Part shown: piece by piece, positions 20,639-56,458 of the stretch
Layout of the letters: every line of letters starts with the position of its first letter
Numbering within the stretch: position 1 is the first letter of the stretch
Source: Branchiostoma floridae
Taxonomy: Eukaryota; Chordata; Leptocardii; Amphioxiformes; Branchiostomatidae
Assembly (NCBI RefSeq): GCF_000003815.2
Contig: NC_049983.1
Location: 20,422,579-20,486,578, forward strand
Length of the DNA stretch: 64,000 nucleotides
Direction of reading: 5' to 3'
Notes under the pieces: model-generated
The model's database searches: none
What the model was told of the DNA's origin: nothing
What the model saw: the letters and a program-made list of their open reading frames with translations, nothing else
Made by a program: the position numbers and the translations under genes

Positions 20639-20685
20639 GCGTTTGGTTACTCTCCAAGCAGAGGTTGAATCGCGCAGATATAGTA

Positions 20686-20733
20686 GTAGTCGGAAAAATT
20701 ACACGGGCGCTCTTGTGTAATTTTTCCGACTAC
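20686..20733. repeat. Perfect 19-bp hairpin core of the TACTCTCC element
   Basis: The left arm GTAGTCGGAAAAATTACAC (20686-20704) is exactly complementary to GTGTAATTTTTCCGACTAC (20715-20733), with a 10-nt GC-rich loop. Perfect arms suggest recent origin or gene conversion between arms. Confidence 0.9.
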
Positions 20734-20910
20734 AGTCAAACCTGTCTATAGCGGCCACTCAAGGGAGCGGACAAATTTGGCCACTATAGACAGGTGGCCT
20801 CTGTATAGAGGTGGTAACTTGTAGATAAAATACCCAAGGGACCGACAAAAAGTGGCCACTATGGACAGGTGGCCCCTCTGTAGAGGTGGCCCCTAATACA
20901 GGTTTGACTG
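20733..20910. mobile_element. Nested 178-bp MITE, CAGTCAAACCTGT ends, TA target
   Basis: The inverted ends CAGTCAAACCTGT and ACAGGTTTGACTG are flanked by TA on both sides (20731-20732 and 20911-20912). The interior repeats GGCCACTATAGACAGGTGGC-like motifs. TA duplication and CAGT.. ends fit the Tc1/mariner/pogo group. It is the same family as the split copy at 8.8-9.4 kb and has no transposase. Confidence 0.85.
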
Positions 20911-20960
20911 TACTGATGTATCTGCGCGATTCAACCTCTGCTTTGAGAGTAGCGTTTGGT

Positions 20961-21495
20961 ATGGTGACCCAGCAGATGTACACAGCCACCGATGAAACTT
21001 TTCTATTACAAACGTCTTGTTACCAGTTTTAAATTCAACATTTTCAGCATTTAAAGCTTCGAATTCTTTGCAACATGTTTCAATTAATTTCAATTTCAGT
21101 CAACTACAGCCCATAGACATACTTCCGTCATCTACATTCTTTATACACACAAAAAAAATGCGTCAAAATATACAGTCGGAGGCTTTCTACAGTCTGAGGC
21201 TTTCTACATTGAGTGACCTAAGTATAGTGAGCAGATACTCCACAGTGCACACCTAAGGGTTACAGTCCAAAATCTCCGTGTACAATTGTTTCCAACGTCT
21301 TAGTTCATTGCCTTGAAGTGGTCTAATGACAATCTCACTTAAAATTCGTTTGTAAAGCTTTACACTTCACTTTATTGGGATCCATACTTAGCTTCGATCC
21401 ATATTATACGTTCGCGTAAGCCCAATCCATATTACAACTTCTGTAGAATCACAACTTTTGTAGTGTGAGCTTTTAATTCTTTTATTTCTCTAACT
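20961..21495 (+). other. 5' flank and possible 5' UTR of the membrane-protein gene
   Basis: No clear TATA box or conserved promoter pattern is seen. The sequence before the start codon is pyrimidine-rich (TTTTATTTCTCTAACT) without a good splice acceptor, which favours a start inside this exon. Confidence 0.35.
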
Positions 21496-22386
21496 ATGGA
21501 ACGCCCGTCTTTCACAGGTTGTTCTGTTCTTGAAAATATGCGAGGAGGTTTGCTAGAAGGAGCCGCACAACAGCCCATGCGATGGAGGAGTTGGATCACC
21601 AGTCCCAAGGTCCTAGGCTTTGCGTCTTCCGCACTGTTCCTCGTACTTGTGAACTACCTTCACTTCGGCGTCATCCTGAAGACGTGGTCTCCACAGAAAC
21701 CCCCCGTGGACAGGGAGAGCTGCACCTGTCCGTGTTGGGACACCGTCTTCAAGGGGACCTACCAGATGGGAATCAGCGGCTACAAACACATGTACTTCAA
21801 CATCACGCCACAGGCGCTGAAGATGTGGACCCTGACTGTTGTCGCCATTCTGTTGGTACATGAGTGTATCTGCTACATCATCCGCATCGTTCAAACCAGC
21901 AAGCTCAGGCTGTCGATGCTCGTGTTGCTGTTATCTGTCATCCACTCGCACTACTACTCATGGTGGGTGATGTGGGGGTACTATAACGACGATTTCTACT
22001 CGCAGTGGCCGCATCAGATGTTCTTCAGCCTGACGGAGCTGATGTCTACGCTCCTGGTGGTGTGGCAGCTGGATGAAGCCACACCCCTGTCCCCACGACT
22101 GTTGCTCGTCATCTTGGACATTGCCCTCCTGCACATCCTGGCCGGGGGAATTGACCAATTTGTTCTCAACGTGATCTTACGGCGAGGAGAACGTCATCAA
22201 GTGCTGAGAGACCTCGCTTTTATGTCGTCTGATGTCATATATCTGATCGTAGCGTGCACAGAGTTGGCACGCTTATCGTGTGGTAACGGAATTACTTTAT
22301 CGCTTCTCTGGAAATCACTGAAGCGGGATTTGCTGTACTCCGCTCTCGTTATAACGACCCTGCTCGTGTTCTTATCGTTCTTATGA
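21496..22386 (+). CDS. Intronless multi-pass membrane protein, 296 residues, family not recognised
   Basis: This is a single uninterrupted frame with a good start context (A at -3, G at +4) and a poly(A) signal 180 bp downstream. Base composition is clearly more GC-rich than its surroundings, as expected of real coding sequence. By eye there are seven hydrophobic segments, near residues 39-61, 108-131, 137-162, 174-192, 200-227, 239-259 and 278-296. The first loop (62-107) holds three closely spaced cysteines (CTCPC at 76-80) and a possible N-glycosylation site (NIT, 102-104), so it probably faces the lumen or cell exterior. A strongly aromatic stretch, HSHYYSWWVMWGYYNDDFY, lies at 150-168. 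I cannot assign a named family, and seven segments alone do not make it a GPCR: I see no DRY or NPxxY motif. Lack of introns could mean a retrogene or a naturally single-exon gene. Confidence 0.85.
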   Translation: MERPSFTGCSVLENMRGGLLEGAAQQPMRWRSWITSPKVLGFASSALFLVLVNYLHFGVILKTWSPQKPPVDRESCTCPCWDTVFKGTYQMGISGYKHMYFNITPQALKMWTLTVVAILLVHECICYIIRIVQTSKLRLSMLVLLLSVIHSHYYSWWVMWGYYNDDFYSQWPHQMFFSLTELMSTLLVVWQLDEATPLSPRLLLVILDIALLHILAGGIDQFVLNVILRRGERHQVLRDLAFMSSDVIYLIVACTELARLSCGNGITLSLLWKSLKRDLLYSALVITTLLVFLSFL

Positions 22387-22565
22387 CGTATGTTGCATTT
22401 TTATCTTCTGATACGCTATCTTCGTGGCTTCCGTAAAGCTAAGCTAGTTGAGCTGTAAATGAGGACATGTCCGAGCTGCACAATTTTTGTTATCTGCATT
22501 TCTGGTAATACACCAAACGCTGTAAACATTTGTGTACGTATATAAACACTCATAGTCAGCACTGT

Positions 22566-22571
22566 AATAAA
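22566..22571 (+). terminator. Poly(A) signal AATAAA
   Basis: This is the first AATAAA after the stop codon of the membrane-protein gene, 180 bp downstream. A second AATAAA follows at 22634-22639. Either could define the mRNA end. Confidence 0.6.
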
Positions 22572-22639
22572 CTCATTGGAAATTTAAACCATAACTTTGT
22601 CGTTCAAATTTCGTGACCCTGTATTGATGAGACAATAAA

Positions 22640-25600
22640 ATCCAATGGCTACCAGTACATGTTTGTCATCGCAATTTTATATACTTCTCTCTTACTCTTG
22701 ATAAACTGCACTTGAAGTAAATAGTAAGACGTGAACACTACGATGGAGTATCAGACACAAAAGGAAATTAAACGTGCCTCAAAGAATTTTCGGCCGTATC
22801 CACCGGCTTCCCCGAGGACTTCATCCCATTTTCCTGACACACACAGATCTTAGGACTTGTGACGTCAGGAGTGGTCCAAAGCCTGTGCATGGAAGTCGAA
22901 ACCTACGATCGTCTCTGTTCAACGTGAATTACAAGCCTAGGGTAAATTACAATTGCGTTCTCCAGTGACAAAAAGAAGCTGTTTTTCTTACTTTTAGTGT
23001 TACAACACAACAAAGTTTGAATCAAGTTTGTCTTTCGTTTACCGTCTACGATAAAATTGTTGCGTCATCGTTGTAACTTAAGTTGTTTTAGTTTCATTTC
23101 AAACTCAAAGTCTTGTATTACTCTTCAATCGTTATGATTGTACAAAACAAGTTAAACAACTTTGTAAGGTCCCTAACAGAGACGTAATTTTTTTAAATGT
23201 ATTGCGCATCTGGATGCTTTACCTTCATTGACGTAAATCTCCAAGCAGTTTCACGAGCGAGCTTCGGTCTTTTATTTGCGCGGTTTTGTGCGTGTGTCAG
23301 ACGAATGTTTCCTTTTCTCTGTTCGTCTTGTTATGTTTTCTTATCTTTAACTTTGTCCTTAGTCATTAGCTAACCCAAACGATGACTCATCGGGGAATGT
23401 GTGAGTTTTCCCGGGTCGGAGATCGCTATCCATGCGCGCAGTTCTGTGGTCTCCCCACGCCGGAGGCTCACCCAACACCGCGGCGCCACTCCGGCGTGTC
23501 GTCTGCGTGTTGTGTTCTCCCAGCCAGGTGGAACACGTGTCCGGAAGGCAGGAGCCTGGTAAACAATAGGACTTGCACCTCAGGTGATGGGGCAAGGGAT
23601 GAATGGCTGGATGAGTGACTGCGCTATACCTGTTTAGATAATGCGGTCTAGACAATGCGTTAATGAAGTGTTGATTTTTTTTCACATTGTCCTTCAGTTA
23701 GAACAAGGAGGTTATAAAGAACTATCCTACAAACGAAGCTCGGAGTGCCTTGAAAATTTACTTATAGACCATTACCAACCCGAGATTATTATTCTGATGA
23801 AAAGTGTTTGTTGAAATTAGCGGGGTCCACATATTAGTATTTACAGTCTTAACTCAGATAACATTATTGTAGATTATGGTATGATCCTTTACTTAACAGC
23901 CATTTTTGTCAAAGAAAAGTGTAATGTCGGACGATCAGTTCGACTCGGCCATGTGCGACCAGTCCGGCTGTGATCTTGTACAGTTTGCCACAAGCAGCTG
24001 TTATACATGGATTTTGGCTCTTTTGCCTTCTCGCAACCGCCTTCATCTCCAGGTCATTTTCTGAGGCCTTGATGGAGTTTGTGCCGCCGTTAATTAAAGT
24101 GCAATGTCATTTAAGAAATACTTATCATGGCACCAACTTATCAGACATGATATATACCCATAACGTTGACAGACAAGATTACTTTATAATGGTGTCCCCA
24201 TTTTGTCTTTCACTGATTGCCGGTTATGTTGCGTGCGAAGTATGCCTAACCCTCACCAACTGTGATGAAAGGTTATCTTTGCATCTTTTGTTCCGTGCAA
24301 TTCCTTCTGCACCATTTCCTCCGCAAATGTAATCAACTGACATTTTAAACTGACGCACCCAGAAGCTTTGATGATTGATTGTTGTGGGGAAAACCATTTC
24401 AGAATGATAATTTCATCTCATCAAAAATGAATGAACAATTGTTGTAGATTGACTGTATGTCTGAGGTATCTGTGCCATGCCATCGTTACTCGTGAGTCAT
24501 TGTTGCTTCTGCTTAATTAGGCTTCTAAATGTTCTTTTTGTGTCAGCATTAAGTATGCATGACGTCCTATATAGGACAGTACATCACACCAGCTCATTAG
24601 CTCTTAGACAAACACTCAGATGCTGGGATGAAGGCAGAGGAAGTGTTTATCTGCTCTTTATATTCTCTGAAGTTAACAATCAGTCTTCATTTAAGTCTTA
24701 GTAATTCTGCTACTATTGTACTTGATTATAATTGCTCATCAAAACGTTTTGACTTTGTATGGAATTCAAAGTAAATGATGTCATAAACATCCAAAGAGCT
24801 ATAACAATTTGTTGATTATCCACACATACTGGGTAGTTAGAATTATTTTATTTCTGTCAGCAATAAGAAACAAAGTGTTCTCAACCATTATCCACCCTCA
24901 CTGTAATAACCAGCACAAGTTTATCCAGTTTGCACAGAGAAAGTTCCCTAATCAATGGAAAAAAGTGACATTTCAAAGGAATATTTCTTGCCACTAATGG
25001 TGACCCAGCACTTAACTTTCAAAGCTGTGAAAGCTCCAATTGGAAGGACAGGAAGAAAACCACATGGGTGCCTTCAAGTCTGATGTCATTTTTATTGCCT
25101 TTCCAGTCTGCAGACCATTACATGTACCCATTAGTGCTGCAGACACTGTGAGAGACTGAACCCTGCAGACTGGGCAGTAAGCCATTACATTCAAAAAGTT
25201 TGGTAGGGAGCATTGTTAAAAATAAAGGACAGAACTTTTTAACAGAGAGAAAGTGATAGACTAGGTGTAAAAAAAACATGTATTAGAATTGATGCTTGGT
25301 ACTGTATGCAGTGTTTAGAACAATAAAGCAAAAGGCATTTGCAATGAAAGAAGTTTATTGAACTTCATGTTTTAATCATACATTTTACATCACTTCTTCT
25401 GTTGTAGCAGAACAATGAGAAGAACAATTCTACAACATTTTCATCACTCAGAATCTGATTGGCAATATTTTATCCTTCGCTAGTGATCGGCCTAAGCTGC
25501 TGTGGTCTGCATGTGTTTGCTACGATCAGTTAGGTATCCAAAATTGCAACACCAAGGCCTAAACCATACTGATCTTTTTCAACGTCATTCTAAGGTGGCA

Positions 25601-27392: not shown

Positions 27393-27395
27393 TAA

Positions 27396-27762
27396 GGCCA
27401 CACCGATTTAATTCCTTGGTTCACGGATTCGCTCGCTCCTATTTTTTGGGAAAAAAAATAAAAATAAAAATTACCACTCAGCAAATTTTCACCATTAATG
27501 AAACCATTCACCAACTTTCTGGTGTAGCAAATTGGCCTTTATATTATAAGCTCCTTAAAGTGTGGGTACAGGTGCTGTTACTGTACAAAAATAGTGTTTT
27601 TGTACTTTTTTCAAGCTGAAAACTTTTTTTCTTTACGTTTTGGATTAGTCGTTACCTTTACCCCAACCATTTTACAAGTTTTATTTTTATTTTTATTTCG
27701 CCCTCTCGCTCCATATTTTTTATGAAAAAATCCGTGAACCAAGAAATTAAATTGGTGTGGCC
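27396..27762. mobile_element. PIF/Harbinger-like MITE, 367 bp, TAA target
   Basis: The inverted ends GGCCACACCGATTTAATTCC and the complement of GAAATTAAATTGGTGTGGCC match over 34 bp with two mismatches. They are flanked by the 3-bp target TAA (27393-27395 and 27763-27765). A TWA duplication with GG.. ends fits PIF/Harbinger. The interior is A- and T-rich with no transposase. Confidence 0.85.
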
Positions 27763-27765
27763 TAA

Positions 27766-29276: not shown

Positions 29277-29279
29277 TTA

Positions 29280-29588
29280 GGCCACACCAAATTTATTTGT
29301 TGCCTCTCGGATTTGTTCAGAAAAAAATTGGACTGGCAGGTCGAAAAAAAGAAGAACTTTTTCAAAAAGGGGATTATTCAAGCTTTCAGCTTTTTATAGC
29401 TTTTTGCATGCCCCGTTGATCTGTTACTACTGTTCTGAATTGTTTTTAGACCGAAATGATGTGTATGTGGCACTATTCATACGTTTGTGATATCAAAACC
29501 TGTTTAATTTTTTTCTAGGGACTTAATTGTATTTAATTTTTTTCAAAAAAGGCAAATCCTAGGAGCAACAAATAGATTTGCTGTGGCC
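29280..29588. mobile_element. PIF/Harbinger-like MITE, 309 bp, TTA target
   Basis: The inverted ends GGCCACACCAAATTTATTTG and the complement of CAAATAGATTTGCTGTGGCC match over about 25 bp with three mismatches. They are flanked by TTA at 29277-29279 and 29589-29591. The outermost 11 bases match the element at 27396-27762, but the interior differs, so these are two sub-families likely moved by the same enzyme. Confidence 0.85.
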
Positions 29589-29591
29589 TTA

Positions 29592-34695: not shown

Positions 34696-34699
34696 AATG

Positions 34700-36696: not shown

Positions 36697-39288
36697 CTGT
36701 AAAACATGAATGGAAGGCAGTCTTTAGTGATGGAGTTATCACCTGAGTCTTTCATTCAGAAAAGCCTTAATTCATTCACAGTGCATTCTCAATAAGAGGT
36801 TGTCAATGTATTACTTATGCAGCAGCATTGTCATAAGACCAACACTGATCAAACGGACAACATGAAATGTATCACTGAGTATAAAATATTCACATCCTTA
36901 CACTACGCTTCGCCCTGCACGTAGGTAGAATATTTTTGTATCATTTTAACGTTCTAATTTTAATTCTAAGTAAAACAAATAAACCCTTCGCCACAAGCTT
37001 GGCACAGTTCCACCCCAAAATTATTATAGCATATATTACGTTGTTACAATAGTGACTGTAAAATGTAGATTATTTCTGTTATCGTTCGCAATCGGATCAA
37101 ACATTTTCCATTATAAAACTGCTCTCCTGGAGTAAATACGACAGGCCGGAAATTCAATGGGGAGGCCGGAGATTGGGCGCGAAGAAGATTTGTTGTGAAT
37201 GGGGCCCCCGCATTGATATGAAAATCGTTTCTACACACACGGCCCGGGTCGGCCGGCCCCGCTGAGTAAAGCGCATCCGTGCGTGCCAGGAATACCAAAA
37301 CCCGCCTGTCCCACAAAACCTGCTCCAAATCTGTCTCCGTTTGGGGCCTGCTTCTGCGGAAATGATGCAGTTTGGGGAGCCGGGGGTCACGGACAAGGGC
37401 TCGCATCAACATCTGGAACCTGTGTCGGCTAGCAGGGGGAAGGTGGGCGAGCGGCTATCGAGTTTCCCCTATTACACACATCCGCGAGCCTGATGGCTTC
37501 AGGCCCGCCGGAAATTAGACGCGGGGCACCTCCGGAGCAGGGGCTCCCTGTGCATACCAAACACACGGGAAGAAACACTGCCTGGCACGGTCAAAACAAC
37601 AGCATAAACACTGGGAAAACTGGAGAACCCAGAAGCATCCCCAAAACACATACATGCCCGTCTGTAGTATATGCCATGGGGGGAAAGAATCCCTACAGCA
37701 TACAGGAATTCAAGCAACCAGGGAACGGCTGACTTTCAAGCCAGGAAAAGGATTTTGGCAGGGAAATCTGTGGAGTCCTGCCAAAACTATAAAGCCATGT
37801 GGACGTGTTTAGACTCGTTGATGAACTCTTGACGGGTCGGAGCTGCTCGGGAGGAGGGGCACTGGCTAAGGTTTCAAACGAAAATATTTCTCAAGTAAAT
37901 AGAGGATATTGCAGGGCCACCTGTACACACCTGGTCTAGGCAGATCTGGCCTGTCAGGGTGTGTAAATAATGACACAACTTCTGTGTACTTCGTCTCCAA
38001 GCTGCGGGTTCAAAACTTCCCCTTACTGCCTTAGAACAGAAATATAGTGCCGGGTAAATTTGTGAAACACACATCCCCTAAAAGAACGTCATTTTTCTGA
38101 CAATTTCTGTGGCAAGCTTGTGGGTATGGGCAAACTGAAACGGCAAAAAAGAACAACATAATTTTGAAGACAACTTACCGATGAAGGATATGGCATCAGG
38201 AAAGAACTGGGAGAGGTTCTGGCTCCAGTGGTCTGAGATGGGGATCTGCTTGTACGTGAAGGTCTCGGATCCCTCGAATTTGTTGGGCAAGTTGGGGGTG
38301 ACGTTGAGGATATGTGTGATGCCGTACTTTCTCAGACTGTCCAAGTTGGCCGCGTCCTTCGCCGTGCCGAGGTAGAGGTAGGGGAGGATCTGGACGGGGT
38401 AGGCGTCCAGGGGAGGCGAGTCGCTGTCCGAGGAGTCGCTTGCGATGTCGGAACCCTCCGAGCTGGAGGACGAGTCNNNNNNNNNNNNNNNNNNNNNNNN
38501 NNNNNNNNNNNNNNNNNNNNNNNNNNNNNNNNNNNNNNNNNNNNNNNNNNNNNNNNNNNNNNNNNNNNNNNNNNNNNNNNNNNNNNNNNNNNNNNNNNNN
38601 NNNNNNNNNNNNNNNNNNNNNNNNNNNNNNNNNNNNNNNNNNNNNNNNNNNNNNNNNNNNNNNNNNNNNNNNNNNNNNNNNNNNNNNNNNNNNNNNNNNN
38701 NNNNNNNNNNNNNNNNNNNNNNNNNNNNNNNNNNNNNNNNNNNNNNNNNNNNNNNNNNNNNNNNNNNNNNNNNNNNNNNNNNNNNNNNNNNNNNNNNNNN
38801 NNNNNNNNNNNNNNNTAGTCTGAGAAAATTGGAGCAAAATCTACTGTACCAAACGTACTGCATGACAGCACACCAGGTGTTCAAATAGTTGACATACAAC
38901 CGGTAAAAAACCGAAGCGAGTAAAGGGGCGTACCTTGTAGGTAGAACGCTCTGCAGCCGTCCTCCTGCAACTTTTTCATCAGAAGGTTTATGGTCTGGCT
39001 CGTGCACCCTGAATCTGTCGATGCCTCGTCGTACAAAATAACAAAGTCCTCCTTGCACCTACGGTTGAACCTCTCCTTGCCGACATCGCTGAGGATTAGG
39101 GTATTGATTGAACAGTTCCCCTTTTTGAGGCGCTTCAACATGAGCGAGGGAATGACAACATTAATGGCGCCCTCGATGTGCGAGGCGGCGTAGTCTTCGC
39201 ATGCCCTGCAGTCCAACTGCAACACGTCCATATCCTGTGTCAGATGGTCGTACAACCAGTCCACGGATTTTGTATTCGGTTCCGTCAT
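36401..39288 (-). CDS. Dusp6/7/9: MAP kinase phosphatase of the DUSP6/7/9 (MKP-3) type, three exons
   Basis: This enzyme family removes phosphate from both threonine and tyrosine of activated ERK in the cytoplasm, and acts as feedback control in FGF/ERK signalling. The gene has the full family plan: an N-terminal rhodanese-like, ERK-binding domain in exon 1; a serine- and aspartate-rich linker followed by the start of the phosphatase domain in exon 2; and the catalytic loop and C-terminus in exon 3. The pieces read [34 protein letters not shown] (general acid Asp) and [20 protein letters not shown] (active-site HCxxGxxR). Joins have matching phases: exon 1 ends after one base of a glycine codon, and exon 2 ends ATC-G while exon 3 begins AG-GAA. 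The 5' part of exon 2 and its acceptor lie in the assembly gap, so about 339 nt are unread. Orthology to the vertebrate DUSP6/7/9 ancestor, not to one paralog, is my inference. Confidence 0.95.
36697..38178 (-). other. Dusp6/7/9: Dusp6/7/9 intron 2
   Basis: This is a 1482-bp GT-AG intron. The part at 37140-37560 is GC-rich, unlike the AT-rich remainder, and could carry regulatory sequence. I recognise no exon or repeat inside it. Confidence 0.85.
38179..38476 (-). CDS. Dusp6/7/9: Dusp6/7/9 exon 2, visible part
   Basis: The readable part begins inside the acidic serine linker ([20 protein letters not shown]) and runs through the first half of the phosphatase domain to PDAISFI. The donor is ATCG/GTAAGT, with the intron starting at 38178. 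The general acid aspartate is in PISDHWSQ. The 5' boundary is hidden by the N run. Confidence 0.93.
38477..38815. other. Assembly gap, 339 N
   Basis: A run of N hides the start of Dusp6/7/9 exon 2, its splice acceptor and the end of intron 1. Sequence resumes at 38816 in what must be intron 1. Confidence 1.
38934..39288 (-). CDS. Dusp6/7/9: Dusp6/7/9 exon 1 (rhodanese-like domain)
   Basis: It encodes 118 residues plus one base. It starts [16 protein letters not shown] in a good context (AAAA before ATG). Features include [18 protein letters not shown] at 27-44 and the ERK-docking basic motif LKRLKKG at 51-57, equivalent to the kinase-interaction motif of DUSP6. It ends CRAFYLQ-G with the donor CAAG/GTACGC, and the intron begins at 38933. 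Confidence 0.95.
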
Positions 39289-41624
39289 TTTTGTTACTGT
39301 CCGAAGTATTGTCTCCTCTTGGACTGGAATCTTGACGAGCTTCTCTCTCCGTGTGGAGAGTGCCTTTTCTCGCTGGTAAAATGTGATGGAATGTCTTGCT
39401 TGAGACGCGAATCGGCGGTAGCACTGCCCCGCTCTAGCCGGCGAAATTCACCGTTGTTCGTCGATAAAATCCTCGGTGTCGCCTGGATCTTCCTTGCCGA
39501 GGTTCCTGGCAAGTCTTCCCGGTATGGATTGGCTACTTCACCCGGTAGCAACAACTGGAGATCTTCGAGAAATACGGCCTGAGCGCTTCTAATGCCCGCC
39601 TCACATCTGACAACACACACACTCTCTCTCACCGACCCCACTCACTTCCATATACAGCACAAACAATACATACTCCTTCTTTTAGACAGCCAATCAGCGT
39701 GCTCCTTTCCATTATCGTCATCGCCGTTACTATGGTGACTAATAACCTCATCTTCCATTGTGTCCATTGACGTTTACGGGACCCGCCTCCGGATTTGGCC
39801 GATACAATATAGTGCACGGTTGCCATCAAATTCAACCTATATAAAATATCGGATGATAATTTTTTCTCGGTATCGGGCAAACACAATACGGTCGGTGCCT
39901 CTGTATGTCGTGTTATGTTTTGTCTACGCATTGATTTAGGGTAATTTTCCGAGGAAGTGCTTATGCTTTTTTTTGGCCAGCAGCGTCTTCTTATTCAATT
40001 CTAAATAAAGAAGACGTACTGATATCATAGTGTGTGACAGTGATCTTGCTTGGCGTACTTTTTGGGGAAATTCGGTCTGGAATATTTGGCGTGAGGTAAT
40101 AAAACGCCCCAATATCATTAATATTGACTCTCAAGATTTGTCTCAATGGAGACCAATCTTGAATAGATAACAATGATTGATGATAGATAAGCAATAATTA
40201 GCATGAGAATATGTGGAAAAGGCATTTACTTAGAAATAACATTCTCTTGGATAATGTTGTTGTTCTTGATTGTCATTAGGTGTTATCTTAAGCATTGCTA
40301 ATATACTACTAGTAGTAGTAGTGGGAAACCAGAGTAAACTTTGTTATCTATCATTTTCGTGTATCATTTTCAGTCCTGTTGTGGAAGGCCACAGATCGTT
40401 TATGAGACAAGCTTTCACATCATTAGTATGAGGACACATCGAAATTGAAAGGCATTTGTCATCTGTCAAATCGCCCACGCAAAAAATTAATGACAAGTCC
40501 CATGTAGAGCTAGAACACACTGCATCTAGCGGACAAAAGCGTTACTGCAGAACGTAACAAATGTGCGCGAAACAGGCGTGTGTATAAAGGTCGCCCCTGT
40601 GGTTTTTCTTCAAATGCCTCGGGGGTCTGGTATTTCCGGTGGCGGTTTACACACAAACACATCAGATGGAGCATACAAATCACTCAAATGGTTAGGGGAG
40701 GAGCCACGCCATTGGCCAGCCGGTCCCCCGGGAGCAGGGATAATTGGTTGTACGGAAGCGAACTGGGTCGATAGCAGTTGTCCGAGAGCGGGGATGACCG
40801 GATGGAATTACTGGGACTGTAAGCGTAATCACCGAGACGGGACGGTAGCAGAGGGCTGAACGGACAGACGGCTGGGACCATGTGTCCATTTAATACGGAA
40901 AGTCGTGCACGAATATTATATTCAAACATTTTTGGTAAAAACCAAACACTCACAACCAGACACAGTGCGAATCAGGGAGAGTGCAGTGAATCTCTTTGTG
41001 AATATGCATTTAATGTATTAGATCTACAATCTATATTATTTATTTTCTGTTCAGATGTACCCCACAAATGTTGTTTGCCTCGACGTCAAAACGATTGATA
41101 AAACCTCACGACAAATGAATTGATAAAGACAAATCCTTTCGAAGCAAAAACAGCGAAACGAGGAATGATAAAATTGATAACATCTATTTATTTTAACATT
41201 TCGTGTGGCGAAATATACCACAAAATACGACAAATATCAGTGTACATTTGATTGACTGCAGCTGCATGCTAATAGATTCGCCCTGGGTGCGCTGAGGCTT
41301 ACACAAGCGTGTCTGTAGCTGACACAGTCTCGGGGATTTTCTTAGCTTTCCTGCGCGGAAATGCAGGTGCTTAACCTTTCCCAGCACTAAAATCACTTGA
41401 AACAACTCTGTATACTCGGGTCATATCCTGTATTGGTATAGGGGAGTTGTATAAACCTATCTTTGGCTCTAGGTAATGGCGGGACTCGTGCCTTGTCGGT
41501 TCGAGGAGGCCCTTTATTTACCACGAGAATTCCGGAAGCCAATTTTAAATGGTTCATGGGCACAGTTGGAAAGGGCACGGTAATACTCACAGCGACGTTC
41601 GGGCTTAGGACTTCGCTAGCACAA
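39289..41624 (-). promoter_or_regulatory. Dusp6/7/9: 5' UTR, promoter and upstream region of Dusp6/7/9
   Basis: The first 350 bp upstream of the start codon are CpG-rich and probably contain the 5' UTR. A CCAAT box (plus strand 39690-39694), an ETS-type GGAAGTG (minus strand near 39650) and a near X-box GTTACTATGGTGAC (39726-39739, one mismatch) follow. ETS sites would suit a gene induced by ERK, but single short motifs are weak evidence. A second CpG-rich block with a CCATTGGCC motif lies at 40620-40860. I see no other gene here. Confidence 0.4.
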
Positions 41625-41656: not shown

Positions 41657-44600
41657 ATTACATAGTCGGTGTAGTCGATCGAAGTGACTGCTGAATGGAG
41701 CCTTGCTCAGTCATTGCTAGAGCCAAGTACATTTACCAAATGCCCTCGCTGAATGATCAAGATTTTGGACCGTCGGACCTCAGAAAGGAAAAGGGATTGT
41801 ATTGTCTCGGCCTGATGATTATCTTGAGAATAACTATAAGTACAACTGTATGTTGTAGGATCACATCGATGACCCATCGATTTCTGTCATTCTCTACTTT
41901 TCTGTCTCAGTTTCTGCAAAACAATTTCGTATTCGTCCAGAGAAACAAAAACAACTGACAGTATCTAAGTAGGTCGGTCGGAACGTACGTACTCTCCAGG
42001 TAAACAGTACAGAATAAACTGTTTTGGCAGACGTCCTTCCAAACCGTGAATGAAGAAAGCCGGGTGATTAGTTAGTACGACATAATGTGCGTGTGTCTAA
42101 TCCACATGGGACCTCGGCGGCTTCCTGTTTACCTTCCACCTTTCATTCATAAAAATCCGTTTGTCACACACGCTGGTTATCGCATTAGCATGTCAATGGA
42201 CAGGTGACTGTGGACAGGATGCGTCAAATCTAGTAACGACACGAAAGCCACAAACTGCAGGTTCCACCTCCTTGGTTACGATAGGTGATAATGATATAAT
42301 GGGCACGTGTGTAGCGACCTAACATCTTCCTGTTTTCCTGTTAAAGGATTAATGAAATCAGTAATTTAGAGCAAATTGGTGTTATTGCTATTTTGTGATT
42401 CGCTAGTACTGTTGTCAGTTGTAGCCCGAGAAAGCGAAATGTCAGATGGTCTCAAACCCCATATTTTTGTCAGGATTTGAACGAGCATTACTATTGTGCA
42501 TATGGATACTAGTTATACGTTCTGAACAGAATATTTGAGTTCAATAGGCACTAGCGTATAATGTGATTAGTTACTGATATAACGTCATGTTGTACGTGCA
42601 AATTCTCGCGTGTATCAAATATTATCTATACATGTACACAACAATTCGCAATAAAATAAGATAAATTATTAATCTTATTCATATTTGGCAGGATGTGCGT
42701 AAAGATCCGATGAATTGAAACACACCTAGCACGCGACCAAGTGATTATGCACAAGGGCAGGGATGGTGTGAGGCCATTTGATAAGGATCTTTTCCCGCCA
42801 TTTCCTCTGTTCCCGCCATGTCCATTCATGAGATCCCAGGTAATTCATGAGTCATGCGTGATCTGGTCAGGATGTGATTTTGCGGATTCGGTTGTTGTTC
42901 ACAAGATGTGCGTACACATTACAAACCGACCCGCAAAATGACCCAAAAAATGTGACAAATTGTGAACCAGAATGTCGTCTGCCAGACGATCGCACGACGC
43001 TAAACCGGAAGGGACACATACTGCACGCCCATCTTTCCTACTGCATTGCATTACCGGCTGCCATTCATATTAGCACTGCTTTTCACAGACATATCATTGT
43101 ATAGTCAAATAATGATAATAATGACAACCATGAGATGCTTCAGTGGGAGCGGTGTTGGGAGGGTGGTCACACATATCACAAAAATATATCAAGGTGGAAT
43201 TGTAAATGTTGAATTCATGTAAGTAACAGAAATTACCATGCAGGCAATGCGCCAAGCTAATACTGAATATTATATTCACATAACGTTACATTTAATATGT
43301 CACGTTTTTCCCAATGTATTTCGATAAAACTAAAAGCTTCAAACTCACAAAGGAAAAAATAAACCGTTGGTAACAATGCCAGCACTGTTTCCAATTGTTA
43401 TGATGTCAGCAATTTGTAGCCGCCAACACATACAGAAATGCAATACTCCTCGCTCAAATACGTATCGCAGACGACGGAGGTGCACTGAATATATATTCCA
43501 TTCATACCATGATAGTAGAGGTGCGGACTGACAGTACTAGTCTTTTCAGTACCCAATGTAACGTTACGTCAATCTGATGTAGGACCGTTAGTTTTTGTCC
43601 CTCGCTGCTGTAAACATTTAGAATTTTGTCATCATAATGACGTCATAAAGTCACGGATTTAATGAATATGCTTATAGATCGGTTGATATTATCATTTGAT
43701 TACATACATCATACTAGTATTTATTTGCGTTGCCAACCCCATCTAATGTTGTTACATATTCTTTGGCGCCAAACGTTACATTGGAAACCATTCTATGTTC
43801 CAAGTCTCATGATGAAGTATCAAAAGAAATCAATGGCGTGTTGTCGCATTTCCGGGGGGGGGGGGGGGGGGCAGTGACCTTCTTTTGAGGACACCCCATC
43901 CGTGATGGCATGAATGAAACGGGCGTAAAATCAATGGCTGGCTCCCGAAAAATGGCGCGCGCGGGTAGACATCTCCAGCGTGGGGAATTCGTCTTCAGTA
44001 GAAAGAATGAAAGCAAAGTCTGCTTCGTGCACGAATAATTTTACCTCCTGATGGATCCATCATCTGTGAGGACTGATCGGCCAATTTAAAACTGAATGTA
44101 TTAGACTGATTTGACAGAGCCTGATGATAAATTGGTAGAAAGACAAATCTGAAATATGGAGTTCAGCACCAAAGGGAACTATTGACGTTGACTAATGTAC
44201 AATAATACAAAAATTATGAACATCTCAACATAAAGCAGGAATATTATAGTTATGATTCCACGGGATGGTGCATCATCGGCTGATAAGCCAAGAGGCCATG
44301 TTTCATCCGGGACATTGAACCTATATACTTATTACTTTATACTTATGCCAGCGTTTTTTAATTCTTTTATTTGATGTATTCGGCTGTATATGCCAGTGTT
44401 ACGATGTTTTGATGACATGAGTGGATGGAATTTTGGGAAAAGTGCAGACATCTTCATATTTAGAAGTCTCGGAACATAATGATACATGTATAAGCTACAT
44501 AGAGTCTATTCCGAGTCACCGAAATGATTTTGTAATTCTAAATTGTTTAAACAATCAAAAAATTAAGTTTGAACATATTGATATTTTTTAGACATTGGGA

Positions 44601-46200
44601 AAGTAACGGTACAAATATCTCTTTATTTAGAACAATTTCAAACATTATGTGTTTTTTCACTGTTGGAACAAGTTCCATCAATTTGCGTCGTTTCTCCCTC
44701 TATAAATACTTCCATTGCCGTCGGAACCGAAGCTGCTATTATAAAGCTGGCTCCATTGTTTGGCTCTTGTATATTTTCTCTATATAGCTATAAATAAATA
44801 GACACTGGCGACGCTTTTGTGCATTTGGAATTTCCTTGGTCCGACAGAAAAAAAGCTTTTCAGTTGATCATTACTCTGTATTGTTGGTGGAGGCTGATGC
44901 CCGGTCATTAACACTGGTGCATTTGCTCGGCTACTGGCTGTGTTCAATTTGCTTGTGCCTAAAGCGGTAGCATAGAAATTACCACTCAACCTTTGCTAAA
45001 ACGAAGAAAGCGGTGCTGCGGTTCAATGTCCTGAGTCCTGAACACGAAGCATCGATCGCGAAAGCGTTCTTACCACCCTAATATGTCTAGATAAATGCAC
45101 CCACACTGGCCACAGGGATCTAGTCGAAATGGACTTTCAACACGGCCTATGACCGGAGATGCAGCGTAGACATCCGCATAGCCACAGTCGGCAACGTAAT
45201 AAGACGGTGCCCACAGGTACAAGAAGAAAACCGCTTATGAGGCTGAAAGGAGATGAGGAAATCTGGTCAGCATGACAGTTCGCTTTCGACCGCTCGAGCG
45301 GACGTTGAACTTCTTTCTTCCTCAGTTGTAACTTGCAGACCCAGAGAGACACTACGGTAGAGAGACACGCCTATAATCATAAGTGTCCGGCTCTGAGTTT
45401 TAGGCGCGTATTTCTGAACTTTGGTACGTCTATCCAGCAGCTCGACGCTTAAACCACGAATTGTGACAGTAGGAGTTAGTCAGCTAGTGTCCTAGGACAT
45501 GTAGGAGTGAACTGGACGGCCGGCGGTGATAGCTGGATAGACTGCAAAAGACTGACTGAAATCCCATGGCAACGTATTTGTCCCTATTTGGCTAAATTTT
45601 TCTCTTGTTGTATCCAACTGACACGTCTGCTTGGAGACTAACAAGAAAGACATACTTGTATAGACCGCCACAAGACCTGAACACTGAGTCGGCACCGTAC
45701 ATCTGCTTGGACATTAGGTGCGTGTCGACTCTTACTCTAAGAACACACCACTCTCTTACATAATGTCAAAGTGGATTTTCTATAGAAATATTTCAACACG
45801 AGTCATCTTGAGAGACGTTAGAAAAGCATCCTGTCGACTCTGACCGAATTCAATTACAGGCTTTGAACATGACTATGGCCTTCACATGGATTGAGATTGA
45901 CATCTCCATGGACGTATGGAAATTCAAATACGTGCTGTAGGAACTGCACAGGGAAAACGTCAAACGCACTAAGAGTAGACAGACAGACAGGCGACAGAGC
46001 CATTCCGACAACCAAACTTGGTTAATTTACTCGGCAAAACTACAAAGTAGCTATGAGTCTGACGCCCCTTGGCCTACTTAGCGGTTGTATCGGATCGTTT
46101 TTTTTTTAACATGACCTGTATCATTCAGGAGGGCACAATGTGACGTGTGTGGCACTTGGGGTCAATGTGAGGTATGCTAAGTTTTATCAAACGTTTTCCT
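41657..46200. other. Intergenic DNA, no supported gene
   Basis: All frames are short. An 18-base G run lies at 43854-43871. No element ends, RNA genes or known protein motifs are seen. Confidence 0.45.
43854..43871 (+). repeat. Homopolymer run G18
   Basis: Eighteen consecutive G. The exact length is prone to sequencing error, and the run can form G-quadruplex structure. Confidence 0.9.
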
Positions 46201-46212
46201 GTCCATCCGTAA

Positions 46213-47664: not shown

Positions 47665-47672
47665 TGTGTGTG

Positions 47673-47720
<48 letters not shown>

Positions 47721-47762
47721 TGTGTGTTTGGTGTGTTTGTTTGTTTGTGTGCTTGTGCGTGT
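47665..47762 (+). repeat. (TGCG)n / (TG)n compound microsatellite
   Basis: About a dozen GCGT units are flanked by GT and GTTT runs. The apparent CVRACVRA-type peptide across it is an artefact of the repeat. Confidence 0.95.
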
Positions 47763-48540: not shown

Positions 48541-48624
48541 GAGTGAGAAAGTGAGTGAGTGAGTGAGTGAGTGAGTGAGTGAGTGGGTGAGTGGGTGAGT
48601 GAGTGAGTGAGTGAGTGAGTGAGT
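48541..48624 (+). repeat. (GAGT)n microsatellite
   Basis: About twenty GAGT units with a few GGGT variants, preceded by a short (TTGG)n run. Confidence 0.95.
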
Positions 48625-49165: not shown

Positions 49166-49380
49166 ACTATAGGGCCATGTGGTGCAACTACTCGGAGTGT
49201 AAGGCCCAGATATTTAGAGGTCCTGGGTTCGGTTATGTAACTACTTTAACGTACCTAGATTCAGCCTTTAGGGGCAGAGATTGCCCTAATCGTATGGGTA
49301 CTCAAGTCAAAGACTCTGACTTAAGGTGTTAGGTCCTTCTGTGCCTACAGGCAATTTGGACACTACTAGACTAACAAACC
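49166..49380 (+). mobile_element. Candidate tRNA-derived SINE
   Basis: GGGCCATGTGGTGCAACTAC at about 49171 resembles a tRNA 5' half with an A box. It is followed 50 nt later by TCCTGGGTTCGGTTATG, which contains a B-box-like GGTTCGGTT. The acceptor stem does not close, so it is not a tRNA gene. The 3' limit is uncertain. Confidence 0.45.
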
Positions 49381-51393: not shown

Positions 51394-51402
51394 ACAGCAC
51401 AG

Positions 51403-51472
51403 TAGTCTCCAAGCAGAGGTTGGTGTGTACTGTGTGAGTACGATTTTTTCCAACGACCTCTACTTGGAAAGT
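51403..51472. mobile_element. TACTCTCC-family foldback MITE, 70 bp
   Basis: The left end TAGTCTCCAAGCAGAGGTTG and right end CAACGACCTCTACTTGGAAAGT are inverted repeats of the same family as 20648-20951. The flanks ACAGCACAG (51394-51402) and ACAACACAG (51473-51481) match at 8 of 9 positions, consistent with an aged 9-bp target duplication. Confidence 0.8.
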
Positions 51473-51481
51473 ACAACACAG

Positions 51482-52547
51482 AGCATGGTTAGGCTGGCCG
51501 GTTGTCTGTGAAAACGAAAGAATAGAATATGTTTACGTAAAATGTACGCAAATAATGACCACGACTATTCACTGTGTAGTTTGATGTCTTTTACTGTTCC
51601 TTCCCGAAAGCTGCCCGGTCTGGTCCGGTTTGGAAATGTGACGGAGGCATTACAGGGACAGCTAAACACGTTCAATACTAGTAATCATTTTACATGTGGA
51701 GAGAGCTTGCGTTGAGGAGTGGATGGGTGAATACGTGGCCTATATGGCAACATTAGGAACGGTTCAATGCATGGTAGTTTTGGCTTGTTCCGGTGACCGT
51801 GACAGGTTTCTTTGGTTAGGTGGTCTTTACCTTTAGATCATGCTGCACTCCCTCGGAGAGACAAGCACATGGAATGACTTACAGGACGATCTGTCGGTGA
51901 TTTGGATTAGTTTGAGTCCCTCGTTAATGACAGGATGTTGTCTGCCTCTCGACTAAAGAGCTTTTTACAGACGTCATAGAACGTCATTGTCTGAATCTAG
52001 TCCCAGCCGGTATTCTCAAGTTTCTATTGGTTCCTGGGGATGTCAAACCACGTAGCTAGATTGGTCTTCAGAGACATAACATTTCTACCTAGACAATGGC
52101 AAACGGAAACAAATAAGCATTTAGATGATCCACAGCTATTGGGGGAGGAGACGATGACTGTTCTGGAAGTGAAGTGCAATAACAGTGGAAACGTGGAAAG
52201 CCGATCAGCACCAAGGGCAGCATACAGTGTTTTTGTTCTGTTCACCTTGTAGTGCGTAGTGACATATTGGTCCGCAAGTTTCCTGAGATTTTCTGCAGCA
52301 AGTTTACTTTTACAGGGAAAATTTGCTAACCCTTCTCCACATTAACGTATTTTAGACTCACCCTCGGACGTAGGAACTCCATTTTACCCGTATTTTAATA
52401 AAAGACAATGTTTAGGCGAATTGCTCGAAGGCTATGCTATATAGGTACTCAAAAAAGTTGAAGAGACCAGAAGATAGCGGCGTGGATTTGGTAACTGGAA
52501 AAAGACGAACAGCCACGAAGAATAGTATAACATATGACTGCTCTGGT
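51482..52547. other. Intergenic DNA, nothing recognised
   Basis: No gene is supported. Short frames overlap on both strands (for example 52024-52252). Confidence 0.4.
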
Positions 52548-52639
52548 CTAAATGCTCGCTTCAGATTTCGACTTGTCAGATTTGACTCCTTCTGAAACAG
52601 TATCAGTGGAAGAAGAAAAATCCCGTCTGTTACGTATAA

Positions 52640-52920
52640 GTTCTGCTTTGTTCGAAGGTGAATATTTTGCTTTTTGTCTGTAAACATGAAGGAATGAGGA
52701 TGATTTCGATGGTATCTTTAAAGTGTTGCATCCTCTTGTGATCGTATAAGGGACAGTTCGAAATAAAGTGTGTTTTATCATTCTTAATTTCAAGAAACGT
52801 TCTTGGGACTCCTGTTGGAGTCTTTCCTATGAAACTTGTTTTATGCGGCATAATTTCTTCTTTCATCCACCCACCACCCGTTTGATTTGTGTAATTGGAT
52901 TTGTTGACGTGCCCAAACAA
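52640..52920 (-). mobile_element. Decayed LINE C-terminal fragment
   Basis: On the minus strand a frame reads FLEIKNDKTHFISNCPLYDH, which fits the end of the zinc-finger-like motif (H-X4-C followed by PLY) found near the C-terminus of many non-LTR retrotransposon polyproteins. The preceding GKTPTGVP fits the usual lead-in. The expected CxxC pair is lost and the frame breaks downstream, so it is a pseudogenised scrap. Confidence 0.45.
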
Positions 52921-54012
52921 GTATCAGACAATAGACCCTAGAGGAATATCGAGATAACCACTTTGAAAACTTAATAAAGGGTAATATGCGGGGGCGTCGA
53001 AGACCGGAATATCATGGCTTGCTGATTTTCTGGAGCAGAAGGGGCTGGAAACAGAATAGACTTAAATGTATAGAAAGCATGTATTTCCCTCCCTCAGTAG
53101 CCCCAGACAATACAAGGCTCTTATGGCCCTGAAACGTCTGTCTTTCGGCCTCTGTGAATATTTTGATGTAATATTTTCACGTCAAATGTAGAAATATGAT
53201 TTGATTTCATATGCGTTTATTAAAAATAGACCTTTCAATATAACGCATGTGCACCTCTATCACGTTTTGAAGTCCTAATGTAAAAGAAATGGTCTGCTTT
53301 CTCAGTGTGAATTATTCCAAACACACGTGCACAATTTAAAATCGATTGAAGTCCAAAATAAGCCAGACATTCTCTGGCATTTTAGCACACGCCTGTCAGC
53401 GTATACTAACACTCCTTTTTTACAGGGCCAGGACGATATAGTTCTCTTTTACAGTGTGCTAGTTTCATCTAGATAGGCATCAGTCAATTGTCATCAGTCC
53501 ATTCAAAGGTTTTCAAATATTTGTCGTAATTCTTAAAATTTTTAATTAAAGAACATTAAAGTCACAACAGTTTTAAGTTGTTATGAAAATGAAACGAAAA
53601 TATAAATATAGATATATTGGCAATATTTTGATATTTTGGAATATTGCGAAAGAAATATTTACGAACATATGCAATATTTTCCAGATTTGGGTTATTGCAT
53701 CCATAAAGGTAGGTGATACTCCGGCCCTACTGTATGCTACTGTACATTATTAGATTTCACTGCTGGACACTGGATCATTTTGGTAACTAGAAATAGTCTC
53801 TAATTTATAAATGAACTCATGAAAAGTTTGTGAACGTATGGTACGGCAATACTCGTGCCATCAATCATGATGTGTTGTTTGTGGAGTTGTCTGGGGTCGT
53901 AGATAACGCGACATGTGGTTCACCTGTCACGTTGCGCGAGATGTTAGAAACGTGCGAGAGGGAGACAATGTAGATGAGCTTGAGAACACCTACGACTGTT
54001 TGTTCCAGTTCG
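52921..54012. other. Intergenic DNA, nothing recognised
   Basis: AT-rich sequence with ATATTTTG/CAATATT runs at 53600-53700. No gene is seen. Confidence 0.4.
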
Positions 54013-54026
54013 GTCGCCATGGCAAC
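54013..54026 (+). promoter_or_regulatory. X-box-like (RFX) motif
   Basis: GTCGCCATGGCAAC fits the X-box pattern GTHNYYATRRNAAC throughout and has the strongly palindromic GCCATGGC core. No adjacent gene start is recognised, and the assembly gap at 54371 may hide one. Confidence 0.35.
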
Positions 54027-54370
54027 GAAACAACAAGACAATACGTGTTTCTCTTTGATTCTTGGTCTGATAATGTTACTAATTAGTAACGATGGATGAC
54101 TAGTAACATGAATGAATCACAAACGCAAATAACCCACGCATGAACTTTCCTTACCCTGAGATCTATTTAGAATCTGTACCATGGGGCTAATTTACAGGAC
54201 TAATTAACCAATCCATACGGCTTGAGTCTTTGACCAATGAAACTAACGAGCTCTTCACGCACCGATTTTCATAGATGTCCAGACACGCTCCGTACAGCAA
54301 TGACTTGATGGGTGCAAAGCGAATCGAGGTGCACGTATGGTGTAAAAGGATGACATGATGGCGATTTGAT

Positions 54371-54470
54371 NNNNNNNNNNNNNNNNNNNNNNNNNNNNNN
54401 NNNNNNNNNNNNNNNNNNNNNNNNNNNNNNNNNNNNNNNNNNNNNNNNNNNNNNNNNNNNNNNNNNNNNN
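54371..54470. other. Assembly gap, 100 N
   Basis: A run of exactly 100 N, probably a placeholder of unknown true size. Confidence 1.
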
Positions 54471-54790
54471 TAGCTGGAGAGGGATCCTCAGTCGACATGA
54501 GCCAATTCGTTACTAGTTGATGGTCCGTTGCCCTCACAGAACTGTGACAAAAGCAAATTTTATATAAGTTGCCATCATTTACAGAGGTAATTCTGAAAGA
54601 AATGCGCATCACGAATTACAGAATGATTAGATTTTCTCATCACGCCTGCAATGGGTACACGCGTTTCAAGAACCAGACTCAAGCAAGCTCCCTCAGTGAC
54701 CGTAAAGCAACAAAGATAGAAAAGTGGCAAAGAATGCGAATGATTTGCAAGAGAAGTTAGCTGGTCATAGCGGTAAAGCTTGCCATTACG

Positions 54791-54870
54791 TACTCTCCAA
54801 GTAGAGGTTGGTGGGGAAGATTGTGGTCTGTTTTATCATATGCCCCACCAACTTCTTCTGCTTTACTTAG
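54791..54870. mobile_element. Probable degenerate TACTCTCC-family MITE
   Basis: The left end TACTCTCCAAGTAGAGGTTG is clear. The inner arm GGTGGGG pairs with CCCCACC. The right end (AACTTCTTCTGCTTTACTTA) is diverged and the target duplication is not visible. Confidence 0.6.
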
Positions 54871-56039
54871 TCATACCGCTACAAAAGATGGTAAGTTGAT
54901 CTGAAACTTAAAGAGTAGTACGACTGCTGTGGTCATGGGTCGTGAGTGAGTGAGTGCTTTGATACAGCTATCTTACGAAAACCTTAGTCTCCGCTACAAC
55001 TTTAGCAGAATTGGACCCTATGGTCATACGTCTTAGGCTATAGGAAATATGTGAACTAAGTCAATTGTTTTCGTCTTAACAGTAAAGCATACATTATGAC
55101 GGAGTCAACCTGCATTTGTGTCATCGATGGTATGTAAAACATAAGAGGTTATTGCTCCCACTCGAAATGAAAACTTATAAGTACTGGCTATTTCCTGAGT
55201 GCAATTATAAGCACCCAGGAAGCTATGATCTGATACGGAAGTAGCTCTTGGCGGAGACCGGTAAAAGGTTCATCTTGTATATCACCTACATTTGTAATTT
55301 CATGAAGCACACTCGTACTTTTATCTCCGGAACCAGCTCTTCAGTGGTGCGCAGTGATTTCCCGCCAGCACAGATCCACAGAGAGATGTAGAGATGGCCC
55401 TGACGCAGTAAACGTGACAACGTTCGTGAGAACACCCACTCACACCTCTGGTGCACCTGCCAATGAGGTTAATTACTTTTCCTCTGAGTACACATTTCAC
55501 GTGCTCACCCCTTTCACTTTAGAACCTCACTTTCACCTGCCGCCCATACCCATCACATTTTCTTGGAAAATGGAAAGATACGAGCCCACTGCGGTAGGTT
55601 TTTCCAGGAACATGGTAATTGGTGATGTTGCTAGTGTTACGCTGCGTCTGTAGAGATAAAAGCTAAAACGCATAACGGGCTCCGCGCCAGTGCTCTGGTA
55701 CCGCCGTTTTTTTTAAGGAGCTGATTCCGTGTGTTTCCGTGTTTCGATAGGTCCTGATGGCAGATGGCTTTTGACGCCAGGACAAGGTGGGACAAATTTG
55801 AGCCCACTAGGAACTGTAGGATATGTTATTCATGACAGATAGAACATAAACAGATACCAAAGATGCAAATGAGGAATTGGTTTGCATAATGGCAAAACTA
55901 CTTCATGATAAATGATGAGAACTTCATACTTGTGACGTGTATTAGTTATTTGAAAGTGAACATCACCATGCATGAACAGACAAGGACAATGTGACACTGC
56001 ACTCAAGTTAGTAATAAAATAACTTACATTACCATTTCC
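54871..56039. other. Intergenic DNA, nothing recognised
   Basis: A 99-codon frame at 55354-55653 (+) shows no family features. No repeat ends are seen. Confidence 0.4.
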
Positions 56040-56458
56040 ACATACACAGTACAGACAGAAGGTAAAGGTAGTCTTTTCTTTTACCTCCGCGACCGAAGTC
56101 AGGTACCCATTTTTACACATGGGTGAAGTGAGGAAGGTAGTGGAAAGTGCCTTTCCTAAGGGCACAACGTCGGGGGCACGGCGAGTACGAACTCGGGACC
56201 TTTATTGATTCCGAGCCGAACGCTCTACCAGTTACTACTCTCCAAGCAGAGGTTAGGCTCTTGCTGTTTTTTTAACGTTTTTTTAGTCGTTTTTATCGGG
56301 CTTGTTTATATCTTGCTGTGTCAAAACCTTCGGCTGGCGTACTTCAAGAAAAATGACAAAAGAGAAACCCCGATAAAAACGACTAAAAAACGTTAAAAAA
56401 AAAACAGCCGGTGCCTAACCTCTGCTTGGAGAGTACCAGTTACGCCACACACGACAAA
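56040..56458 (-). mobile_element. tRNA-derived SINE with conserved core, interrupted by a foldback MITE
   Basis: On the minus strand the head reads GTGGCGTAACTGGTAGAGCG (A box) and then CCCGAGTTCGTACTCG (B box), as in a tRNA. It is followed by the core TTGTGCCCTTAGGAAAGGCA ... CACTTCACCCATGTGTAAAA ... GGGTACCTGACTTCGGTCGC. This core resembles a widespread invertebrate SINE domain (possibly Nin-DC), from memory. The insertion at 56236-56434 splits the A-box region. The 3' limit is approximate. Confidence 0.75.
56236..56434. mobile_element. TACTCTCC-family foldback MITE, 199 bp, inside a SINE
   Basis: The ends TACTCTCCAAGCAGAGGTTA and TAACCTCTGCTTGGAGAGT are inverted, flanked by perfect 9-bp copies of ACCAGTTAC (56227-56235 and 56435-56443). 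The inner arms AACGTTTTTTTAGTCGTTTT and its complement extend the palindrome on both sides of a roughly 70-nt centre. No coding sequence. Because the duplication is SINE sequence, this insertion is younger than the SINE. Confidence 0.92.

What the first reader, a model, noticed from the sequence alone, without database searches (positions are those of the whole stretch)
20648..56434. A foldback transposon family with TACTCTCCAAGCAGAGGTT ends and 9-bp target duplications
Three clear copies (20648-20951, 51403-51472, 56236-56434), one degenerate copy (54791-54870) and a possible 36-bp relic (14798-14833) share the same 19-bp end. Target duplications are 9/9, 8/9 and 9/9. The interiors are unrelated between copies yet each is palindromic, so only the ends seem needed for movement. 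9-bp duplications point to a Mutator- or Merlin-like enzyme, but the ends do not match a family I can name.
Basis: seen in the sequence. Interest (0 to 1): 0.7.

Follow-up and report, generated by a model that had tools for sequence, protein, structure and literature searches.

The report
Short hairpin transposons sharing 19-bp ends
A handful of short pieces of jumping DNA in what looks like an animal genome share the same 19-base ends, and three are clearly flanked by 8-9-base copies of the insertion site; this looks like an ordinary non-autonomous transposon family, probably of the Mutator type, although its enzyme could not be found.

Summary
The finding is real, with corrections. The 19-bp end occurs 9 times (up to 3 mismatches) against 0.01 expected. 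At symmetric edges three copies have target duplications of 9/9, 7/8 and 8/8. The last two become 8/9 and 9/9 only if the element's final A is given to the target, so 8-9 bp is safer than 9. Two degenerate copies have weak 6/9 duplications.

"Each interior is palindromic" holds strongly for 2 of 5 copies, weakly for 1, not for 2. The first copy's odd interior is a 178-bp element at a TA (pogo-like, label recalled) inside a 124-bp hairpin of 58 pairs. The 36-bp "relic" may be part of a 114-bp one.

Best reading: a non-autonomous foldback/MITE family moved in trans, most likely by a Mutator-like (Phantom-type) transposase, as mosquito Muta1 moves relatives with unrelated interiors and makes 8- or 9-bp duplications (PMC5225508, passages). 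No transposase was found; the window's own genome could not be searched, so the superfamily is inferred. New member of a known kind; low interest.

The parts
20648..20951 (.). copy 1, whole element including a nested insert
   Evidence: 19-bp ends with 0 and 1 mismatches; 9/9 duplication; hairpin with z -15.9, nested insert included
20648..20666 (+). left end of copy 1
   Evidence: exact match
20933..20951 (-). right end of copy 1
   Evidence: 1 mismatch
20639..20647 (.). target duplication GCGTTTGGT, left
   Evidence: 9/9 with 20952-20960
20952..20960 (.). target duplication GCGTTTGGT, right
   Evidence: 9/9
20733..20910 (.). nested 178-bp element CAGTCAAACCTGT...ACAGGTTTGACTG flanked by TA on both sides; not part of the family
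   Evidence: the pogo-like label is recalled, not tested
51403..51473 (.). copy 2 (71 bp)
   Evidence: ends with 1 and 3 mismatches; duplication 7/8, or 8/9 if the last A is given to the target
56236..56435 (.). copy 3 (200 bp), long hairpin arms
   Evidence: both ends exact; duplication CCAGTTAC 8/8, or ACCAGTTAC 9/9 with the right edge one base further in; z -14.7
54791..54869 (.). copy 4, degenerate
   Evidence: left end with 1 mismatch; right end degenerate, not found by the scans, placed by eye; duplication 6/9, weak
   Evidence: left end score 12, right end score 13; duplication 6/9, weak
45622..45640 (-). single end without a convincing partner
   Evidence: 3 mismatches; one weak candidate partner at 43234
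45698..45716 (-). weak single end
   Evidence: score 11, where 0.35 ends of score 11 or more are expected by chance; no partner

Best explanation
These are copies of a non-autonomous cut-and-paste DNA transposon family (foldback/MITE type). The shared terminal 19 bp would be the site that a transposase made elsewhere in the genome binds and cuts. It would insert the element at a staggered break, leaving 8-9-bp target duplications. The enzyme is most likely Mutator-like (MULE, Phantom group). Two copies (20648, 56236) have inverted arms of about 60 bp, probably because one end was copied twice in inverted order during repair of an excision or replication break. Shown here: shared inverted ends, duplications, dissimilar interiors, nested insertion. 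Inferred: movement in trans, the Mutator enzyme, the repair origin of the arms.
For: Ends far above chance, inverted at both edges of three copies. Duplications of 9/9, 7/8 and 8/8 abut those edges. In 9 of 13 ends, chosen by me, 12 of the first 17 positions are invariant and agreement fades after position 18 (c4R, c5L and the two weakest single ends left out; the ends were found by likeness to the 19-mer, so some agreement is built in). No similarity between interiors in 9 of 10 pairs at p < 0.05, uncorrected. Precedent, from passages: Muta1 insertions in yeast had 8-bp (21) or 9-bp (39) duplications, with little or no sequence preference; its transposase mobilised the natural non-autonomous relatives Muta1NA1-5, whose interiors differ; 14 Aedes MULE families are said to have 8-9-bp TSDs (PMC5225508). 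MULEs have TSDs of 8-11 bp, and the elements analysed in that study had TIRs of 14-500 bp (PMC6446971). Tm1, a foldback family with 8-10-bp, mostly 9-bp, duplications in 45 of 53 complete elements, includes a member encoding a Phantom-like transposase (PMC3169594).
Against: No transposase with these ends was found. 13 of the 21 ORFs of 120 aa or more listed were scanned against Pfam and none matched a transposase; the other 8, and all shorter ORFs, were not scanned. A foldback shape does not tell the superfamily: Galileo, also foldback, is a P-type element (PMC3169594, PMC3573991). I made no systematic comparison of these ends with known MULE ends; the Tm1 terminal motifs given differ from them. 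Copies 2 and 3 fit 8 bp at symmetric edges, which other superfamilies also make (recalled: hAT, P, Merlin). No empty site was seen: the joined flanks of copies 1-3 matched only themselves in the window.
Confidence: 0.55

Rival explanations
1. The same kind of non-autonomous family, but moved by an enzyme of another superfamily that duplicates about 8-9 bp, such as Merlin, hAT, a P-type (Galileo-like) transposase or the Mutator outgroup Rehavkus.
For: At symmetric edges two of the three good duplications are 8 bp long. Foldback shape occurs with a P-type enzyme (PMC3573991, passages). Rehavkus has 9-bp TSDs (PMC6446971, table passage). Duplication lengths of Merlin (8-9), hAT (8) and P (8) are recalled.
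Against: A 9/9 duplication abuts copy 1 exactly, which fits strictly 8-bp makers poorly; mixed 8 and 9 bp matches Muta1 (PMC5225508, passages). The ends do not look like the hAT, P or Merlin ends that I recall (not tested).
Confidence: 0.38
2. Several distinct MITE families, each with its own autonomous parent, that share only a conserved terminal motif, rather than one family served by one enzyme. (Overlaps with the other readings; it concerns family structure, not enzyme.)
For: 9 of 10 pairs of interiors show no similarity at p < 0.05; arms agree only over about 18 bp.
Against: Copies 1 and 3 share 19 identical bases at an edge, long for a motif kept by convergence. Copies 2 and 4 agree over 23 bp at 91%, but that is only 4 bases past the end and their interiors as a whole are unrelated (p 0.89).
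Confidence: 0.25
3. Not transposons: chance or functional hairpins (regulatory or RNA genes).
For: Strong hairpins in copies 1 and 3.
Against: Shared ends far above chance, with duplications exactly at the edges. No Rfam family reached its gathering score at these places.
Confidence: 0.02

Closest known systems
Muta1 and its non-autonomous relatives (Mutator/Phantom, Aedes aegypti; PMC5225508, passages; placed with Phantom in PMC6446971, passages)
   Same: 8- or 9-bp target duplications, shared ends, variable interiors, classed by its authors as a foldback element
   Different: Muta1 has a known transposase and 145-bp ends with tandem subterminal repeats; Tandem Repeats Finder lists no array inside copies 2-5, and in copy 1 only one inside the nested insert, and no transposase was seen
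Tm1 (Mutator/Foldback, root-knot nematodes; PMC3169594, passages and first part of the discussion)
   Same: foldback shape, 8-10-bp and mostly 9-bp duplications, MITE-like members
   Different: Tm1 ends are composite, with asymmetric terminal motifs and about 14-bp repeats; here the ends are simple and symmetric
FB4 (Drosophila foldback; PMC8277862, passages)
   Same: 9- to 10-bp duplications, inverted-repeat build, non-autonomous, enzyme unknown
   Different: about 700-bp inverted repeats against 19 to about 60 bp here
Maize Mu elements (PMC3276141, passages)
   Same: conserved ends with unrelated interiors and 9-bp duplications
   Different: about 220-bp ends; Mu13 is 1494 bp long
Galileo (P superfamily foldback; PMC3573991, passages)
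   Same: foldback build; the two arms of one copy nearly alike (98-100% in Galileo)
   Different: very long internally repetitive ends; P-type transposase

Membership tests
non-autonomous TIR transposon (MITE/foldback) | same sequence inverted at both edges of several copies | tested here: met
   copies 1, 2 and 3 clearly; copies 4 and 5 degenerate
non-autonomous TIR transposon (MITE/foldback) | target duplications at the edges | tested here: met
   9/9, 7/8, 8/8; two further 6/9 are weak
non-autonomous TIR transposon (MITE/foldback) | long inverted arms filling most of the element (foldback) | tested here: inconclusive
   strong in 2 of 5 copies, weak in 1, absent in 2
Mutator (MULE) | 8-11-bp target duplications | tested here: met
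   in three copies; not specific to Mutator
Mutator (MULE) | MULE-domain transposase in a full-length member | tested here: inconclusive
   none in the 13 of 21 listed window ORFs scanned; the genome could not be searched
Mutator (MULE), Phantom group | FLYWCH zinc finger plus MULE domain (PMC3169594) | not testable with these tools
   no autonomous copy available
Merlin | 8-9-bp duplications and a Merlin (IS1016-like) transposase (recalled) | tested here: inconclusive
   duplication length fits; no transposase available
hAT | 8-bp duplications (recalled) | tested here: inconclusive
   two of three good copies fit 8 bp, copy 1 shows 9/9

The most novel reading that the evidence does not exclude
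One transposase needs only about 18 terminal bases and the elements between them are built afresh: each long-armed copy is an independently formed inverted duplication of different DNA. The family would then be a record of hairpin-forming repair events (strand switching) caught between minimal transposon ends.
Probability: 0.12. Interest if true: 0.5.

Novelty: new member of a known kind. Interest (0 to 1): 0.22.

Why it matters
If genome-wide copies bear it out, the family would show how short the essential end of an animal foldback transposon can be, and would let one ask how near-perfect palindromes arise inside such elements. As it stands it is a small non-autonomous family of a familiar build.

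Tried and rejected
Whole-genome search for the end with the genome search 'own': not answered in 13 of 13 requests. Exact-match scans of viral contigs (18 bp) and of bacterial and archaeal genomes (19 bp): none. These collections are not expected to hold animal DNA, and the tool says that records near the window's genome may be left out, so this says little.

Full-text search for CTCTCCAAGCAGAGG: 0 papers. TACTCTCC together with amphioxus: 4 papers, judged unrelated from title and start of abstract only. 'LanceleTn': 0 papers, though one paper writes 'LanceletTn-2', which that term would not match. The amphioxus MITE paper that I recalled is not held. Other paper searches were seen as listings, apart from the papers cited. 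Repbase and Dfam were not available, so I cannot say that the family is uncatalogued.

The amphioxus origin is a guess. What is shown is a DUSP6-like protein on the minus strand at 38881-39444. Partners for the single ends at 45640, 45716 and 58385 were sought within 2.5 kb: one weak candidate for the first (6/9 duplication, 10/19 end), none for the others. A transposase in the window: 13 of the 21 ORFs against Pfam gave only a rhodanese domain. Empty sites: the joined flanks of copies 1-3 matched only themselves in the window.

The length-9-only probabilities printed were inflated because runs of N matched each other; I use those, where N was excluded. The shuffles come from a routine of my own that swaps segments between equal bases. 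The 36-bp relic as a complete element was rejected: no duplication at its edges.
Full report
What was checked. The end TACTCTCCAAGCAGAGGTT occurs 9 times in the window with up to 3 mismatches; 100 shuffles gave a mean of 0.01. A gapped scan found 10 ends at score 12 or more against a mean of 0.05 in 20 Markov-model sequences, adding a left-like end at 14720, and two weak ends of score 11 at 45698 and 58367 (12 ends at score 11 or more, 0.35 expected). Of 13 ends collected, I stacked 9; positions 1, 2, 4, 6, 7, 9, 10, 11, 13, 14, 15 and 17 are invariant in them, and agreement fades after position 18. The four left out (c4R, c5L and the two weak single ends) are more degenerate, and because ends were found by likeness to the 19-mer, some of the agreement is built in.

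Target duplications. At symmetric edges (TACTCTCC ... GGAGAGTA) copy 1 has GCGTTTGGT 9/9, copy 2 CAGCACAG/CAACACAG 7/8, copy 3 CCAGTTAC 8/8. Both readings fit 8-9 bp. Chance of such matches at fixed edges and length in this window: 2e-5 (9/9), 6e-4 (7/8 or better), 5e-5 (8/8). Over lengths 7-11 the values for copies 1, 2 and 3 are 0.00015, 0.0024 and 0.00035, and with shifts of one base also allowed 0.0005, 0.004 and 0.0005. Copies 4 and 5 have 6/9: 0.013 at fixed length 9, 0.05 over lengths 7-11, and 0.17 and 0.06 with shifts. They support the reading only weakly.

Copy 1 explained. Its interior holds a 178-bp element at 20733-20910 with ends CAGTCAAACCTGT...ACAGGTTTGACTG and a TA on each side. 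From recall, such ends and a TA target are those of pogo/Tigger-type Tc1-mariner elements; that label was not tested. Part of it recurs at 8776-8825 (77% over 52 aligned positions). Without it the host element is a 124-bp hairpin with 58 pairs and a 4-base loop in the predicted fold.

Palindromic interiors. Beyond the 19-bp ends, the two halves of the interior match each other in inverted order in copy 1 (score 64, shuffle maximum 29) and copy 3 (74, maximum 44), weakly in copy 4 (16, p 0.014), and not in copy 2 (8, p 0.63) or copy 5 (16, p 0.08), with 1000 shuffles each. Whole elements fold better than most shuffles, as they must with inverted ends: z -15.9, -14.7, -4.8, -3.1 and -6.1 for copies 1 (nested insert included), 3, 2, 4 (taken as 54791-54870) and 5. 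No shuffle reached copies 1, 2, 3 and 5 (100 shuffles for copy 1, 200 for the others); 1 of 200 reached copy 4. Of 10 pairs of interiors, 9 show no similarity at p < 0.05; the tenth (copies 1 and 5) has p 0.045 without correction (200 shuffles each). Copies 2 and 4 share 23 bp at 91%, 4 bases past the end, but their interiors as a whole do not match (p 0.89).

Surroundings. The window looks like animal DNA: a reading frame on the minus strand at 38881-39444 matches dual-specificity phosphatase 6 (entry 1hzm, 2.5e-29) and a rhodanese domain. Copy 3 lies in a stretch that reads like a tRNA-derived repeat (by eye; ARAGORN found no tRNA gene in the window). The joined flanks of copies 1-3 matched only themselves in the window, so no empty site was seen. 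No transposase was found in 13 of the 21 ORFs of 120 aa or more.

Mechanism. Inverted ends with flanking duplications are the marks of cut-and-paste insertion (anatomy shown, process inferred). The elements are 71-304 bp long, too short to encode a transposase, so they would have to move in trans (inferred). The 8-9-bp spacing and free interiors match Mutator-like elements best: in yeast the Aedes element Muta1 gave 8-bp duplications in 21 and 9-bp in 39 insertions, and its transposase mobilised the natural relatives Muta1NA1-5, whose interiors differ (PMC5225508, passages). MULE duplications are 8-11 bp, and TIRs of the elements analysed in that study 14-500 bp (PMC6446971, passages). Tm1 is a foldback family with a Phantom-like transposase (PMC3169594: passages, and the first of two parts of the discussion); FB4, whose enzyme is unknown, is judged by the authors of PMC8277862 more likely a MULE than Tc1-mariner (passages). 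Galileo shows that a foldback build can also go with a P-type enzyme, and its authors call TIR length no reliable feature for classification (PMC3573991, passages). How the arms of copies 1 and 3 grew is inferred; the Galileo authors propose that repair of one end from the other end as template can copy a longer tract.

Limits. The decisive step, a search of the source genome, did not complete in 13 of 13 requests. Scans of viral contigs and bacterial and archaeal genomes found no exact copy, which says little for animal DNA. The text search for a 15-bp core found no paper, but repeat libraries were not at hand, so the family may already be catalogued.

Verdict.

Noticed in passing
27393-27765 and 29277-29591: Two elements with left ends GGCCACACC, right ends GGTGTGGCC and GCTGTGGCC, and 3-bp flanks TAA/TAA and TTA/TTA, as in PIF/Harbinger-type MITEs (label recalled; sequences).
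   Followed up: partly
10830-11714: Inverted arms of 180 nt, 98% complementary, beginning TACGAGGGGGGTTCAATAAG, like a mariner-type element (label recalled), with a second inverted repeat nested inside at 11189-11469.
   Followed up: partly
12729-12840: A 5S rRNA match on the minus strand, 48.6 bits against a gathering score of 38; a gene, pseudogene or 5S-derived repeat.
   Followed up: no
20733-20910 and 8776-8825: A nested TA-flanked element inside copy 1 and a partial relative of it elsewhere in the window.
   Followed up: partly
56100-56460: Copy 3 interrupts a stretch that reads like a tRNA-derived SINE on the minus strand (by eye).
   Followed up: no
56941-57648: An ORF of 235 aa on the minus strand that by eye resembles the C-terminal part of a LINE reverse transcriptase; Pfam gave no match up to E 0.01.
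   Followed up: partly
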